A DNA stretch of 64,000 bases, from the NCBI GenBank assembly GCA_903879715.1, contig CAIRMR010000186.1:1-64000 (forward strand), written 5' to 3'. Positions 3,634 to 61,812 of the stretch are shown piece after piece. Each line of letters opens with the position of its first letter. Position 1 is the first letter of the stretch. The position numbers and the translations under genes are program-made. The notes under the pieces were generated by a model. It was not told where the DNA came from, ran no database searches, and saw only the letters and a program-made list of their open reading frames with translations. The DNA is from an uncultured Bacteroidales bacterium. Lineage in GTDB: Bacteria; Bacteroidota; Bacteroidia; Bacteroidales; UBA4417.

Positions 3634-3770
3634 TGTTAATTGAGGTGTTAGGTGTTAGGTTTTAGGGTTTAGTAACTCATACTAAACTAAGTTCTCACAA
3701 GCAATTATAAACCCGCTTACAATTCTCAATTACCCGGAACCAGGGATATGGCAGCAGGCACTTGTTAATT

Positions 3771-13860: not shown

Positions 13861-14715
13861 ATGAGATACGTTAAATCAATCATAATAATTTTCCTCCTTA
13901 CGATACTGGTATTTTCCTGTACCGAAAAAATTGATATTCAACTGGATGATAGTTACACCCGTTTAATCGTTGAAGGTTCCATTACCACCGATACAATGGT
14001 TCAAACCGTTATACTCAGTACAACTTCCAGTTATTACTATAACGAGCCTGCTCCAATGGTTTCTGGTGCACAGCTTAGTATTTCGGACGGTACGCAAACA
14101 TTTAACCTGCACGAAGATTCAGCAGGAGTATACCGGACTGAACCTTCCGTTTATGGTGTTGCCGGACAGACTTATACATTAAGCATCAAACTTGAAAAAT
14201 CGATAGGCGGATATACTGACTATACAGCCATTTCAAAACTAAATCCGATTGTCCCTCTTGATTCGGTAAGTCTGCTCTTTCATCCCGATTGGGCTAAAAA
14301 TGGAATCTGGGAAGTGAAATGTTATGTGCAGGAACCTCCGACAATTGATTTTTACCGTTTCCTGATATTGAAGAACCGTATGTTACTTACCGATACTTTA
14401 AATGAGTGGTTTGTTACGGATGATAAATTCTTCAACGGGAACTATACCAATGGAGCTACCGTTGCCTACCTTCAGCAGGGTTCAGTCAGGGATGGGTTAG
14501 CACCCGGTGACACAGTAACGGTAGAAGTAAACAGTATTGGAAAGGAATATTTTAATTTTATAACAGAAGCCCAGACTGAGCTGCGTGGTTCAAATCCATT
14601 GTTCAGTGGTCCTTCGGCCAATGTTAAGGGGAATATTAACAATGGAGCTGTAGGTTTTTTTGCTGCTTATTCCACTACCCGGTCGTATACTCTTGCGCCT
14701 GAGTTTAAGAAATAA
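13861..14715 (+). CDS. DUF4249-type lipoprotein
   Basis: A 284-residue protein with a short signal peptide and lipobox (LVFSC, Cys near residue 20), so it is probably lipidated and anchored to the outer membrane. Beta-rich sequence follows, with VEGSITTDTMVQTVILSTTS near the start as in DUF4249 proteins. DUF4249 proteins are encoded next to TonB receptors with a carboxypeptidase-like domain, as here; a role as surface partner of the receptor, similar to SusD in concept, is inference. The frame ends in YTLAPEFKK. The following spacer is filled by repeats. Confidence 0.82.
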   Translation: MRYVKSIIIIFLLTILVFSCTEKIDIQLDDSYTRLIVEGSITTDTMVQTVILSTTSSYYYNEPAPMVSGAQLSISDGTQTFNLHEDSAGVYRTEPSVYGVAGQTYTLSIKLEKSIGGYTDYTAISKLNPIVPLDSVSLLFHPDWAKNGIWEVKCYVQEPPTIDFYRFLILKNRMLLTDTLNEWFVTDDKFFNGNYTNGATVAYLQQGSVRDGLAPGDTVTVEVNSIGKEYFNFITEAQTELRGSNPLFSGPSANVKGNINNGAVGFFAAYSTTRSYTLAPEFKK

Positions 14716-14724
14716 GTGAATAGT

Positions 14725-14785
14725 GTCGCTTCGTTTTGCTTCACTCCGTTTGCAATGACAACTAGCAATGACAGCTACCAATGAC
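14725..14785. repeat. Dispersed repeat that encodes spurious CHCKRSEAK-type peptides
   Basis: The minus strand contains TGTCATTG three times, followed by CAAACGGAGTGAAGCAAAACG. This is a sequence type I recall from many genomes as a short interspersed repeat, often mis-annotated as peptides with CHCxRSEA. It lies directly after the DUF4249 stop codon. Confidence 0.5.
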
Positions 14786-15009
14786 AGTGAATAGTGAATA
14801 GCAAATACTGAATAAAGAACAAAAAATAACGAATTACGAATTACGAATTACGATTTACGATTTACGATTTACGATTTACGAATAACGAATTACGATTTAC
14901 GATTTACGATTTACGAATTACGAATTACGAATTACGATTTACGATTTACGAATAACGATTTACGATTTACGAATAACGAATATCGAACAACGAACAACGA
15001 ATAACGAAT
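14786..15009. repeat. Heptamer tandem array, 32 units
   Basis: The spacer between the DUF4249 gene and the next gene is a continuous 7-bp periodic array. From 14829 the units are almost all ACGAATT, ACGATTT or ACGAATA (26 units, 182 bases); the preceding 14786-14827 is in the same phase with units such as AGTGAAT and AGCAAAT. No unit is inserted or lost from phase. It fills nearly the whole 339-base gap between genes; no gene is visible in it. Confidence 0.95.
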
Positions 15010-15054
15010 AACTTATCCGGTTCCCTATCCCTTTAACGAAATTCCAGGATATCT

Positions 15055-15624
15055 ATGCACGATATTGAACCCTATTATAACTGGCACAGCCTTTACCTTG
15101 CTTCTGAGGATGAGCGCTCCCCTTTTTACGGGCGTGAATACAGTGAATTTGAATTTACCGGCAAGGTTTATAATTATCTTATTCATCCGCAATGGGATTA
15201 CATTGGTTCCGAAACCCTGTATGTGAAATTGCTTTTTACCGATTATGAAAAAGGATATTGCATTATTGAATTAATAGGCGAGTGGAACGATTGTCTGTAC
15301 AACGATATTATGTTTCTCTACCGCAATGTAATAGAAACCTTGCTTGAAAACAGTATCACAAAATACATTCTGATTGGCGAAAATGTGCTTAACTTTCATT
15401 ACTCCGACAACGATTATTACCAGGAATGGTTTGATGAACTGGAAGACGGCTGGATCGTTTGCCTCAATTTCCGTGGCCATGTAATTCAGGAATTCGAAGC
15501 CGGGCACCTGGATTATTATATGGCGATGGGTGGAAACTTTGATATTTTGCCCTGGCGTACAGCTTCGCCGCAAAAACTGTTTCTTGTGGTGGAACAATTG
15601 ATCACACGGAGACTGAATATGTGA
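15055..15624 (+). CDS. Conserved-type hypothetical protein, tyrosine- and acid-rich
   Basis: A 189-residue soluble protein without signal peptide, rich in Tyr, Asp, Glu and Trp (for example NDYYQEWFDELEDGW near residues 120-134). I recall similar unannotated proteins in Bacteroidota but cannot name a family or function. The frame is clearly coding: good length, ATG start at 15055, and amino-acid composition of a folded protein with alternating hydrophobic strands (YVKLLFTDYEKGYCIIELIG). It sits between two repeat-filled spacers (7-bp array upstream, GGGGCGA-type units downstream) and is followed by acylphosphatase on the same strand. Confidence 0.75.
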   Translation: MHDIEPYYNWHSLYLASEDERSPFYGREYSEFEFTGKVYNYLIHPQWDYIGSETLYVKLLFTDYEKGYCIIELIGEWNDCLYNDIMFLYRNVIETLLENSITKYILIGENVLNFHYSDNDYYQEWFDELEDGWIVCLNFRGHVIQEFEAGHLDYYMAMGGNFDILPWRTASPQKLFLVVEQLITRRLNM

Positions 15625-15690
15625 TGAGGGGCGACAAGGCGAGGGGCGAAATGGCGAGGGGCGATAAGGCGACAAAATAGGGGCGAATAG
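15624..15690. repeat. GGGGCGA-type 7/8-bp repeat
   Basis: Units GGGGCGAC, AAGGCGA, GGGGCGAA, ATGGCGA, GGGGCGAT and AAGGCGAC follow each other directly, starting at the stop codon of the hypothetical gene. The same unit family reappears at 18950-19060. Confidence 0.75.
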
Positions 15691-17341: not shown

Positions 17342-17376
17342 CTTCCCTAACCCCTAATCCCCAAAACCTAACTCCT
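17342..17376. repeat. CCTAA-type heptamer array
   Basis: CTTCCCT, AACCCCT, AATCCCC, AAAACCT and AACTCCT follow in register, five heptamers ending within the 3' end of the mnmD-like gene. It is one of several arrays of this unit type (see 19163). Confidence 0.6.
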
Positions 17377-18949: not shown

Positions 18950-19060
18950 GGGGCGATGAGGCGATGGGCGAAAGGCGATGGGGCGAAAGGCGACGGGGCC
19001 AAGAGGCGATGAGGCGAAGAGAGAAAGGCGAAGGGGCGATGAGGCGACGAGGAGAATTTT
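18950..19060. repeat. GGGGCGAT/GAGGCGAA-type 7/8-bp repeat array
   Basis: Units such as GGGGCGAT, GAGGCGAT, GGGCGAA, AGGCGAT and GAGGCGAA follow each other for about 110 bases directly after the exonuclease stop codon. It is the same unit family as at 15624-15690. No gene lies in this spacer. Confidence 0.85.
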
Positions 19061-19162: not shown

Positions 19163-19204
19163 AGTCCCTAGTCCCTAATCCCTAATCCCCAATTCCTAAC
19201 CCCG
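19163..19204. repeat. CCCTAAT-type heptamer array, 6 units
   Basis: AGTCCCT, AGTCCCT, AATCCCT, AATCCCC, AATTCCT and AACCCCG follow in strict 7-bp register, just upstream of the FKBP promoter. Confidence 0.85.
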
Positions 19205-31261: not shown

Positions 31262-31480
31262 GAGGGGTTAGGTTTTAGGGATTAGGTTTTAGGGTTCAAA
31301 TGTTCAAAGGTTCAAAAGCTCTGCGTTCAAAGTTCAAAAGTTCAAATGCTTCGCGTTCAAAGGTTCAAGGTTCAAATGCTGCGCGTTCAAGGTTCAAATG
31401 TTCATTAAGAATTCACAATTCACAATTCACAAATCACAATTCACAATTCAAACATCCGAAATCCGAAATCCGACATCAGG
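31262..31480. repeat. Compound heptamer arrays of three unit types
   Basis: Three arrays follow in series: GGGGTTA, GGTTTTA, GGGATTA, GGTTTTA (from 31262); GTTCAAA/GGTTCAAA units with 7-8 bp spacing (31285-31400); then CACAATT, CACAATT, CACAAAT, CACAATT, CACAATT (31413-31447) and ATCCGAA, ATCCGAA, ATCCGAC to about 31475. The arrays end at the 3' end of the SDR gene. No gene is visible. Confidence 0.9.
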
Positions 31481-33895: not shown

Positions 33896-33970
33896 TTTCT
33901 GTATTCAGTTTTTCTTTTTGTGTTTTTCAAATATGTTTTTTCTTCTCTTAACTGATTGCATCTTTTTAAT

Positions 33971-34118
33971 CCCCAACCTGAAGGTCGGGGCAATAGATTC
34001 TCCGATCAACTATTTTTTCTTAACTAATGATCCCCGACCTAAAGGTCGGGGCAATAGATTCTCCGAATAACTATTTTTTCTTAACTAATGATCCCCGACC
34101 TGAAGGTAGGGGCAATAG
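33971..34118. repeat. 61-bp tandem repeat containing a palindrome, 2.4 copies
   Basis: Copies begin at 33971, 34032 and 34093, so the period is 61 bases. Each starts with a hairpin, CCCCGACCT-GA-AGGTCGGGG in the best copies, followed by CAATAGATTCTC and an AT-rich stretch. The third copy stops after about 26 bases. From 34135 a heptamer-like ATTTTCC/ATTAACT array continues to about 34170. Confidence 0.9.
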
Positions 34119-34190
34119 ATTCTCTAATTTTCTATTCTCTATTTTCCATTTTCCATTAACTATTTTCCATTAACGCTCATCCTTTATCAA

Positions 34191-41165: not shown

Positions 41166-41249
41166 GCCCAGGTGGTGAAATTGGTAGACACGCCAGCTTG
41201 AGGGGCTGGTGTCCTTAAGGATGTGCAAGTTCGAGTCTTGTCCTGGGCA
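41166..41249 (+). tRNA. tRNA-Leu (GAG)
   Basis: An 84-nucleotide class II tRNA. Acceptor arm GCCCAGG/CCTGGGC with discriminator A at 41249, anticodon stem CCAGC/GCTGG with loop TTGAGGG (anticodon GAG at 41200-41202), a long variable arm (TGTCCTTAAGGATG) and T arm with GTTCGAGTC. CCA is not encoded. It reads CUC/CUU leucine codons. Confidence 0.95.
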
Positions 41250-41276: not shown

Positions 41277-41360
41277 GCCCAGATGGTGAAATTGGTAGAC
41301 ACGCTGGTTTCAGGGACCAGTGGCCTTACGGCTGTGCAGGTTCGAGTCCTGTTCTGGGCA
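41277..41360 (+). tRNA. tRNA-Leu (CAG)
   Basis: An 84-nucleotide class II tRNA. Acceptor arm GCCCAGA/TCTGGGC with discriminator A at 41360, anticodon stem CTGGT/ACCAG with loop TTCAGGG (anticodon CAG at 41311-41313), long variable arm and GTTCGAGTC T arm. It reads CUG. CCA is not encoded. It is 27 bases after tRNA-Leu(GAG) and shares its transcript. Confidence 0.95.
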
Positions 41361-54437: not shown

Positions 54438-54472
54438 GGGGATTTTAAATTCCGATGTGGCCTGAATTTATA

Positions 54473-54542
54473 AAGTCCCAAGTTTCAAATCCCAAGTTTC
54501 AAATCCCAAATTTCAAATTTCAAGTTCCAAGTCCACTATTCC
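54473..54542. repeat. AAGTTTC/AAATCCC-type heptamer array, 10 units
   Basis: AAGTCCC, AAGTTTC, AAATCCC, AAGTTTC, AAATCCC, AAATTTC, AAATTTC, AAGTTCC, AAGTCCA and CTATTCC follow in strict 7-bp register between the convergent PKD protein and PorP/SprF genes. Confidence 0.9.
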
Positions 54543-54653
54543 AAGAGCTTATAACTCAAATCTTCATTTAGGTACTGCCTGGAATTTGGAGCTTGGATTT
54601 TGGAATTTGAGTCTTAAATTAATCGGAAATTTCTTCCGTTTTTCAGAATATCA

Positions 54654-58566: not shown

Positions 58567-58941
58567 TTGTCACAGATTACCTTCGGTGAGAACGCTTTGT
58601 TATTCGCTTCGCTCATGAGATCGCTTCGCTAAGTTCGCTTAGTTACGCAGATTACCTTCTGTGAGATCGCTTTGTTATTCGCTTCGCTCATGAGATCGCT
58701 TCGCTCATGAGATCGCTTCGCTCATGAGATCGCTTCGCTCATGAGATCGCTTCGCTCATGAGATCGCTTCGCTAAGTTCACTAAGTATCACAGAATTTAA
58801 ACTGCTTTCAACGGTTTTTCAAATGAAATTTGTTCATGCTAACTGAAAATTTATATGTAAAAGCTTAGCAATGGTTCGGCTTTGCACACCATAAATCCAG
58901 GCATATAATGTTTGTCAATACTTTAAATGAACTGATTGTTC
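58567..58941. mobile_element. MITE-like palindromic element, copy 4, disrupted by a 17-bp tandem repeat
   Basis: GTCACAGATTACC (from 58569) and, at the right end, TTGTCAATACTTTAAATGAACTGATTGTTC (to 58941, matched in pieces to copy 3) are family sequences. Between them is a 17-bp tandem array and the family core TTAAACTGCTTTCAACGG. The left end is not clear and the inner right arm is lost, so the element is degenerate. Confidence 0.6.
58605..58773. repeat. 17-bp tandem repeat array within copy 4
   Basis: CGCTTCGCTCATGAGAT occurs once at 58605-58621 and five times in direct tandem at 58680-58764, with a partial sixth copy. Unit CTCATGAG is itself palindromic. The array has no spacers, so it is not a CRISPR. 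Confidence 0.92.
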
Positions 58942-61578: not shown

Positions 61579-61686
61579 GTGTTGAGATTAGTAGATTCTG
61601 CCAATATTTAAATTGTAGTACTGATTTGGCTGGAAGTCGGAAGACCGAAGCAGGAAGACCCAATCAGAATTCTCAATCTTAGTTTC

Positions 61687-61812
61687 GTCTCCCGACTTCC
61701 GTCTCCCGTCTCCCGACTCCCGACTCCCGACTTCCAACTTCCAACTTCCGACTTCCAACTTCCGACTTCCAACTCCCGACTTCCAACTCCCGACTTCCGA
61801 CTCCCGACTCTT
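61687..61812. repeat. GACTTCC/AACTTCC-type heptamer array, 18 units
   Basis: Eighteen heptamers such as GTCTCCC, GACTTCC, GACTCCC and AACTTCC run in strict register from 61687 to 61812 and abut the TAA stop codon of the glycyl radical enzyme (61813-61815). They fill most of the 234-base gap between enzyme and activase. Confidence 0.95.

What the first reader, a model, noticed from the sequence alone, without database searches (positions are those of the whole stretch)
14786..15009. A 32-unit heptamer array, and the same 7-bp period in at least ten other spacers with unrelated units
The longest array keeps perfect 7-base phase for 224 bases (units ACGAATT, ACGATTT, AGTGAAT and others). Strict or near 7-bp arrays with unrelated units are also at 17342-17376, 19163-19204, 31262-31480 (three unit types), 54473-54542, 61687-61812, and looser 7/8-bp ones at 15624-15690 and 18950-19060, with short ones near 1838, 3650 and 34135. 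All are intergenic. A shared period with different sequences suggests one generating mechanism, such as slippage with a preferred step, rather than copying of one element. Heptanucleotide arrays (STRRs) are known from cyanobacteria; I know of no named equivalent here.
Basis: partly seen in the sequence, partly recalled or inferred. Interest (0 to 1): 0.68.

Follow-up and report, generated by a model that had tools for sequence, protein, structure and literature searches.

The report
Seven-base repeat arrays between genes
The spacers between this bacterium's genes hold many short tandem repeats whose unit is mostly seven bases long although the letters differ; they grow and shrink in place between related species, a known kind of bacterial repeat seen here in unusual detail.

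Summary
The array at 14786-15009 is real: 32 units of 7 bp in unbroken phase. The 7-bp preference holds in genome stretches taken by contig number: intergenic autocorrelation peaks at lag 7, then 14 and 8; coding sequence shows only the 3-bp signal. It holds in 80 loci from other genomes, nearly all labelled Bacteroidota, and is absent from 400 kb of E. coli K-12. The units are not one-offs: nine of the window's arrays have matches elsewhere in related genomes. Orthologous spacers show growth and loss in place, including differences of exactly 7 and 14 bp. Best explanation: local tandem duplication and deletion (slippage or mispairing) with a preferred step of about 7, then drift and homogenisation, in spacers that tolerate it. 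The enzyme behind the step is not shown, and how unit families reached many loci is open. Heptanucleotide excess in bacteria and the polymerase-step idea are in print (Mrazek 2007, as cited by PMC4679880 and PMC4692102), as are heptamer assemblages in Bacteroidetes (PMC4679880). New member of a known kind, with new evidence on step and turnover.

The parts
14786..15009 (+). 32-unit heptamer array, family (T/A/G)ACGA(A/T)T; its right end is in register with the five-unit array of G009 (L004), three of those five units identical
14716..14785 (.). left part of the same spacer, with a 13-bp degenerate repeat CAATGACAGCTAC
   Evidence: sequence; TRF row 14753-14787
3643..3672 (.). short array AGGTGTT/AGGGTTT
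15626..15672 (.). 7/8-bp mixed array of GAGGGGCGA and AAGGC words
   Evidence: orthologous spacer I
17342..17376 (.). weak array of CCCTAAC/CCCTAAT words; similar words at this place in G003 and G009
   Evidence: not listed by TRF at score 40
18952..19056 (.). 7/8-bp mixed array of GGCGATG/GGCGAAA words
19163..19203 (.). array AATCCCT/AGTCCCT
31263..31296 (.). array TAGGTTT/TAGGGAT, nearly unchanged in G003
31294..31404 (.). 7/8-bp array GTTCAAAG with GCTCCGC-like inserts
   Evidence: matches elsewhere in G003
31410..31450 (.). array AATTCAC
31454..31477 (.). array ATCCGAA, 3 units here, about 11 in G003
34127..34174 (.). array ATTTTCC/ATTAACT
54473..54534 (.). array TCCCAAG/TTTCAAA; the spacer is exactly 14 bp longer than in G003
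61686..61810 (.). 17-unit array ACTCCCG/ACTTCCG
   Evidence: G009 has a shorter array at the same place

Best explanation
These are intergenic simple sequence repeats that arise and change in place. During replication or repair a strand mispairs with itself about seven bases out of register (8 or 6 less often), which adds or removes one or more units. Point mutation plus repeated duplication and deletion homogenises each array and lets its unit drift. Genes purge such changes; spacers tolerate them, so the arrays sit mainly in spacers. Shown here: the 7-bp preference, its concentration in spacers, growth and loss at orthologous sites, and some differences of exactly 7 and 14 bp. Inferred: that the step comes from the replication or repair machinery. 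How the same unit families came to occupy many loci (ancient seeding, occasional copying, unit conversion or parallel drift) is not settled.
For: Period: in G000 stretches taken by contig number (484,510 bp, 74,577 intergenic), intergenic arrays by period were 7:12, 14:5, 21:1, 8:5, 28:2, 11:1; one shuffle of the same sequence gave 1 array in all, at lag 23. In 80 loci of other genomes around one conserved gene, 40 of 60 intergenic arrays have a period of 7, 14, 21 or 28, and 13 of 60 have 8, 16 or 24. E. coli K-12: 0 intergenic arrays in 400 kb and no excess of 7-bp two-copy repeats (1 against 2.2 expected); G000 has 51 against 11.0 and other Bacteroidota loci 23 against 9.0. In place: of 100 orthologous spacer pairs G000/G003, 24 carry a 7-type array in at least one species, 13 in both and 11 in one only; median length difference is 53.5 bp with arrays and 1.5 bp without. 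Clean steps: a 422/429-bp spacer pair that shows, besides one base change, a difference of exactly one 7-bp unit; window 54438-54653 differs by 14 bp; a further 14-bp tandem duplication in L344, whose unit is not visibly 7-periodic. Old edge, new interior: G009 has five units in register with the right end of the 32-unit array, three of them identical. Little sign of block exchange: mean longest shared run between loci 1.95 units against 2.10 in permuted arrays; the 10-unit maximum is two contig ends that flank one array of G003 and so are probably one locus.
Against: Clean tandem indels between G000 and G003 are few: 8 in 32.5 kb of aligned intergenic sequence, of which 4 are 7 or 14 bp. Length differences that are multiples of 7: 7 of 24 array spacers, about 3.4 expected (counted by hand). 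Two-copy repeats may partly be remains of shrunken arrays; in the array-poor congeners the excess at 7 is small, 6 against 3.0. Recurrence of the same unit at many loci (68 exact hits of an ACGATTT 18-mer on 19 contigs) is not predicted by independent slippage alone. Against a first-order chain of units, shared runs between loci are longer than expected (1.95 against 1.68, 0 of 100 replicates reach it), and two loci, L089 and L097, share eight units and the same palindrome nearby, which looks like copying. In the ACGA family four columns stay at 0.89-1.00 consensus while three fall to 0.65-0.82 (38 arrays in 32 stretches). Some arrays lie under the ORF mask: 8 of period 7, 14 or 21 in the eight nearest relatives' loci and 8 of 58 in stretches picked for arrays; these ORFs may be spurious. 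Period 8 is a clear second preference. No strain pair of one species was available.
Confidence: 0.7

Rival explanations
1. The arrays are dispersed or mobile elements: blocks of units are copied from locus to locus, perhaps together with the REP-like palindrome CTGAGCGNAGNCGAAG and a REP-associated (Y1) transposase.
For: The same units recur at many loci within the genus. In G003 11 of 30 palindrome copies examined have a strong 7-bp array beside them, against 2.5% of random spacer positions; in G000 1 of 15 beside period-7 and 3 of 15 beside period-8 arrays, against 1.5% and 0.6%; 2 of 30 and 1 of 15 lie beside arrays of other periods. The palindrome lies in or beside arrays of several unit families. 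L089 and L097 share eight units and a palindrome, and the window array shares six units with L089. G000 and G003, with the most array matches, also have the most Y1 transposase matches, 16 and 15.
Against: Flanks of different ACGA arrays share only short or low-identity stretches. Unit runs shared between loci are no longer than in permuted arrays. At least eight array sites lie at orthologous places in G003 (the G003 stretches were picked because they hold arrays). Outside G000 and G003, Y1 counts do not follow array matches: G005 has 1 and 17, G007 has 5 and 6. In the array-poor congeners G001, G004, G006 and G007 the few palindrome copies looked at stand without arrays.
Confidence: 0.18
2. 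The arrays are selected binding sites, for example for a protein that reads ACGA every 7 bp, and the other three letters are free.
For: Column conservation in the ACGA family: four columns at 0.89-1.00, three at 0.65-0.82. Changes in the variable columns are mostly transversions among T, A and G, unlike the core changes (counts).
Against: No orientation of ACGA arrays relative to flanking co-directional genes (16 sense, 22 antisense) and no fixed distance. Arrays are present or absent between close species. One spacer holds different units in different species. The exact ACGA-type 20-mer is absent from 60 of 60 other Bacteroidota genomes searched. A shared ancestral pool of variants would give the same column pattern.
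Confidence: 0.08
3. Assembly artefact or chance periodicity.
For: The relatives with a title are mostly metagenome assemblies, and at least four of the 19 contigs with the ACGATTT 18-mer begin or end in or near the array (C24, C31, C50, C130).
Against: Separately assembled relatives have arrays in the same spacers. Shuffles give almost none. In general, contig ends are not clearly enriched in arrays: 2 of 43 ends against 1.3% of random windows, too few to tell.
Confidence: 0.02

Closest known systems
Prokaryotic long simple sequence repeats of 5-11 nt, heptanucleotide class (Mrazek 2007; paper not held, known from passages of PMC4679880 and PMC4692102)
   Same: Heptanucleotides as the most abundant class in most genomes, with slippage and a polymerase contact length of about 7 proposed as cause
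   Different: Here units are degenerate and often alternate (14-bp period), several families share one genome, and turnover is seen at orthologous spacers
TAACTGA direct repeats of Beggiatoaceae, Cyanobacteria and some Bacteroidetes (PMC4679880: passages and its Bacteroidetes section)
   Same: Intergenic heptamer arrays; other heptamers beside them in Gramella, Aequorivita and Elizabethkingia; presence or absence between close relatives; contigs that end in them
   Different: TAACTGA is not among the 43 distinct units; the ACGA arrays show no orientation preference
GGGAATC repeats of Xanthomonas and GGGGA(C/T)T repeats of Nostoc (PMC4692102: abstract and passages)
   Same: Heterogeneous heptamer arrays at many intergenic loci, length differing between related species
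   Different: One G-quadruplex type of unit per genome is described there; here 43 distinct units, 4 of which hold a run of three or more G or C (units)
Heptanucleotides of the cyanobacterium Calothrix PCC 7601 (mentioned in PMC4692102; the name STRR is recalled)
   Same: Several 7-bp tandem units in one genome
   Different: Sequences not compared here
Chloroflexus aurantiacus (GATAGRA)n satellites (PMC6749651: passages)
   Same: One heptamer family at many places of one genome (22 satellites)
   Different: A single family is described there

Membership tests
Prokaryotic heptanucleotide long simple sequence repeats | head-to-tail 7-bp units, more than chance | tested here: met
Prokaryotic heptanucleotide long simple sequence repeats | 7 favoured over neighbouring unit lengths | tested here: met
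Prokaryotic heptanucleotide long simple sequence repeats | mostly outside genes | tested here: met
   18 intergenic and 2 coding arrays of period 7, 14 or 21; in picked stretches 50 and 8
Prokaryotic heptanucleotide long simple sequence repeats | length change by whole units | tested here: inconclusive
   clean cases of 7 and 14 bp; only 4 of 8 clean tandem indels and 7 of 24 length differences are multiples of 7
TAACTGA direct repeats | unit TAACTGA | tested here: not met
   not among the 43 distinct units of 82 arrays
TAACTGA direct repeats | one orientation, just upstream of start codons | tested here: not met
   ACGA arrays only
Xanthomonas/Nostoc quadruplex heptamers | G-run in every unit | tested here: not met
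   units; the main array has mostly one G per unit
Cyanobacterial STRR | the named Calothrix heptanucleotides | not tested
   sequences not held
REP/RAYT elements | palindrome with a Y1 transposase that mobilises it | tested here: inconclusive
   palindrome near part of the arrays; transposase number follows array number only in G000 and G003
Contingency-locus (phase variation) repeats | length change switches a gene | not testable with these tools
   no expression data

The most novel reading that the evidence does not exclude
Many Bacteroidota carry an intrinsic indel step of 7 nt (second choice 8), set by a replication or repair enzyme, that acts already on unique sequence. E. coli lacks it. 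It steadily writes heptamer arrays of any sequence into spacers and rewrites them over the time that separates sister species, so the arrays are a readable record of an enzyme's grip on DNA.
Probability: 0.35. Interest if true: 0.7.

Novelty: new member of a known kind. Interest (0 to 1): 0.45.

Why it matters
The cause of the heptanucleotide abundance in bacteria was a proposal in 2007 and, by the papers seen here, still was in 2015. Here the preference is visible at the two-copy stage, is absent in E. coli in the same test, and differences of exactly 7 and 14 bp are seen between related spacers. That makes the step directly testable in laboratory Bacteroidota. Practically, some contigs of this assembly end in such arrays, the arrays give BLAST matches between otherwise unrelated loci, and they may serve as fast strain markers.

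Tried and rejected
Transposase link: Y1_Tnp (PF01797) counts over 21 genomes are highest in G000 and G003 but do not follow array matches in the other congeners. Reverse transcriptase as a telomerase-like source: RVT_1 (PF00078) has no match in G000, which is rich in arrays, and matches in 11 of 21 genomes; rejected. Contig-end enrichment: 2 of 43 ends in the sample against 1.3% of random windows; too few, not pursued. Secondary structure: median fold z 0.00 and mean -0.57 over 39 arrays; no signal. Strand composition: 28 of 43 distinct units lack G or lack C, against 19.4 expected for matched GC; noted, not explained. Orientation and placement: none consistent, apart from a mild excess in spacers between co-directional genes, 81 of 98 arrays against 411 of 590 background spacers (18 arrays at stretch edges and 7 under ORFs left out; stretches partly picked for arrays). 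Indel spectrum between G000 and G003: too few clean tandem events. First palindrome scan with too strict a pattern was replaced. Rfam: only two tRNAs in the window at the gathering threshold, nothing in the arrays. An ORF mask of 90 aa or more was used as a stand-in for gene calls.

Full report
WHAT WAS CHECKED. The window is bases 1-64000 of one contig (C186) of a 6.07-Mb, 223-contig genome, called G000 here. The nearest relatives with a title are metagenome genomes labelled Bacteroidales or Bacteroidetes; one congener is labelled Lentimicrobiaceae. G003, G009, G008, G007, G002, G012 and G005 were matched to the titled loci L003, L004, L005, L006, L007, L008 and L010 by equal contig lengths. 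The array at 14786-15009 reads as 32 seven-base units without an indel. The first six units are diverged (AGTGAAT, AGCAAAT, ACTGAAT and so on), the middle is a mixture of TACGATT, TACGAAT, AACGATT and AACGAAT, and the right end is ATCGAAC/AACGAAC/AACGAAT. It lies between a DUF4249 gene (13861-14715) and a conserved gene of 189 aa without a Pfam hit (15055-15624); an acylphosphatase follows.

THE PERIOD. I took stretches of G000 by contig number (30 stretches, 484,510 bp, 74,577 bp intergenic by an ORF mask). Intergenic autocorrelation is highest at lag 7 (z 8.7), then 14 (6.5), 8 (5.8), 4 (5.7) and 6 (4.7); coding sequence shows only the 3-bp codon signal. Intergenic arrays there: period 7, 12; 14, 5; 21, 1; 8, 5; 28, 2; 11, 1. 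The two of 28 are not heptamer arrays by eye. One shuffle gave one array of any period. Extrapolated, that is about 225 heptamer-type arrays in the genome (inference). With the window and further stretches added, some of them chosen for synteny with array loci, lag 7 reaches z 14.2, and lags 14, 8, 6, 15 and 21 reach 12.2, 7.5, 6.2, 6.1 and 6.1. In 80 loci of other genomes that surround one conserved gene (titles nearly all Bacteroidota), 40 of 60 intergenic arrays have a period divisible by 7 and 13 of 60 one divisible by 8; in the eight nearest relatives eight further 7-type arrays fall under the ORF mask. In 400 kb of E. coli K-12 there is no intergenic array and no lag-7 signal (z 0.2). 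Outside arrays, exact two-copy tandem duplications in G000 are in excess at 7 bp (51 against 11.0 expected), less at 6 (65 against 41.8) and 8 (10 against 3.4), with few at 9-13. Other Bacteroidota loci show 23 against 9.0 at 7, 15 against 1.4 at 8, 51 against 31.4 at 6 and 4 against 0 at 11. E. coli has 1 against 2.2 at 7. G003 has 41 against 11.3 at 7; three array-poor congeners together have 6 against 3.0. Lags of 14 and more are cut out of that test by its array filter.

THE UNITS. An exact 18-mer of the ACGATTT unit has 68 hits on 19 contigs of G000, and its reversed control none. Twelve congeneric genomes were searched with the window region; most show further hits to the array, while G001, G004, G006 and G007 have few matches (the match list was cut). 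A 20-mer of the unit is absent from 60 of 60 other Bacteroidota, none of them of the same family. So this unit family is lineage-specific while the period is wider. Searches with other window pieces list matches in G003, G008 and G009 at most array positions (none listed for 60633). Units can grade into each other: the orthologous spacer of L343 carries TAGGATT-type units in G000 and TACGATT-type units in G003, aligned without a gap over some 29 bases. In the sampled G000 and G003 stretches, 82 arrays have 43 distinct consensus units. In the ACGA family the columns A, C, G, A keep 0.89-1.00 consensus while the other three fall to 0.65-0.82, over 38 arrays in 32 stretches and about 613 units (many of these stretches were picked for this unit). 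This is either a pool of old variants or a constraint, and I could not separate the two.

TURNOVER. Spacer A (14716-15054) is 339 bp in G000, 85 bp and without an array in G003 (97% identical neighbour protein), and 118 bp in G009 with five units in register with the right end of the window array, three of them identical. No array is seen in L005 (G008), L009 and L010 (G005). L006, L007 and L008 (G007, G002, G012) have other words of about 7 bp there, such as TTTCCCC/TTTCCAG and TGGTTAA. Of 647 G000 spacers examined, 100 had an ortholog in the G003 sequence held. 24 of the 100 carry a 7-type array in at least one species: 13 in both, 4 in G000 only and 7 in G003 only. Median length difference is 53.5 bp with arrays and 1.5 bp without (means 122.7 and 22.9); part of the stretches had been picked because they hold arrays. 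Clean cases: one 7-bp unit difference in a 422/429-bp spacer pair with otherwise one base change; 14 bp at window 54438-54653; a 14-bp tandem duplication in L344 whose unit is not visibly 7-periodic. Of the 24 length differences 7 are multiples of 7, against about 3.4 by chance. A general indel count gave only 8 clean tandem events in 32.5 kb, 4 of them 7 or 14 bp.

LOCAL OR COPIED. For 23 ACGA arrays of G000 with at least 8 units (248 pairs), the longest shared run of units averages 1.95, against 2.10 in permuted arrays and 1.68 in first-order chains; the second comparison goes against purely local evolution (0 of 100 replicates reach the observed value). The longest run, 10 units, comes from L084 and L087, two contig ends whose other flanks meet at one array of G003, so probably one locus. 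The next, 8 units, is between L089 and L097, which also both carry the palindrome beside the run and may be a copied block; the window array shares 6 units with L089. Within arrays of at least 14 units, units two apart are alike more often than expected (0.305 against 0.233) while neighbours are not (0.184 against 0.234), so 14-bp steps seem common. Flanks of different ACGA arrays share only short or low-identity stretches. My reading is mainly local change with some copying possible.

PALINDROMES. The REP-like CTGAGCGNAGNCGAAG has 54 copies in G000, 83 in G003 and 1-14 in the seven other congeners searched. In G003, 11 of 30 copies examined have a strong 7-bp array beside them, against 2.5% of random spacer positions; in G000 1 of 15 beside period-7 and 3 of 15 beside period-8 arrays, against 1.5% and 0.6%. 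Copies at one locus are not independent. It lies in or beside arrays of at least five unit families. Whether hairpins promote slippage or arrays are good landing sites is open.

WHAT IS KNOWN. From passages of PMC4679880 and PMC4692102 and the whole Bacteroidetes section of PMC4679880: Mrazek 2007 found heptanucleotides to be the commonest class in most genomes and proposed that 7 nt is the length in contact with the polymerase; I could not read that paper itself. PMC4679880 also describes heptamer repeats beside TAACTGA sets in Gramella, Aequorivita and Elizabethkingia, shorter spacers without them in close relatives of the first two, and contigs that end in them. PMC4060949 (passages) suggests that mismatch repair is efficient on loops of 1-3 bp and weak on longer ones, which would explain why short units are rare but not why 7 is favoured. 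PMC6749651 (passages) reports 22 satellites from one heptamer in Chloroflexus. PMC4596501 (passages) describes a 23-nt minisatellite inside a MITE of Porphyromonas gingivalis, a different unit length. Searches of the held library for heptanucleotide or heptamer repeats with Bacteroidetes or Flavobacterium (1 of 1, 15 of 24 and 12 of 143 papers listed) showed no survey of the phylum; the library lacks most subscription journals.

VERDICT. A real and strong 7-bp habit of intergenic tandem repeats in this genome and in other Bacteroidota, best read as local duplication and deletion with a preferred step. The kind is known. The comparative evidence for turnover, the contrast with E. coli and the palindrome association are what this work adds.

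Noticed in passing
58679-58773: 5.6 perfect copies of a 17-bp repeat (TCGCTTCGCTCATGAGA). The stretch just left of it, 58570-58652, matches about a dozen places in G003, and a few further hits cover the repeat itself.
   Followed up: partly
33969-34124: 61-bp repeat, 2.6 copies, each with a palindrome of the CCCCGACCTGAAGGTCGGGG kind; two such copies in G003 and a changed one in G009.
   Followed up: partly
41166-41249 and 41277-41360: Two tRNA genes in tandem, the only Rfam hits in the window.
   Followed up: no
L106:7364-7411 and L115:156-215: 28-bp repeat units of the TCATTGCGAG/GAAGCAA type; similar words (GCAATGACA) lie left of the main array.
   Followed up: no
L006, spacer after the ortholog of 15055-15624: In this relative (G007) the spacer is 1417 bp and holds an open reading frame with a P-loop-like motif by eye, with heptamer-like words on both sides.
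   Followed up: no
L098:10180-10545 and L192:5400-5640: Some ACGA arrays are followed in the same spacer by the inverted unit (TCGTAAA), as if part of the array had been flipped or strand-switched.
   Followed up: no
L089:8490-8743 and L097:5330-5660: Two loci share a run of eight ACGA units and the same palindrome beside it, a possible copied block.
   Followed up: partly
G000 and G003: These two genomes hold 16 and 15 Y1 transposase matches against 1-5 in the other congeners, and the most CTGAGC palindromes of those searched.
   Followed up: partly
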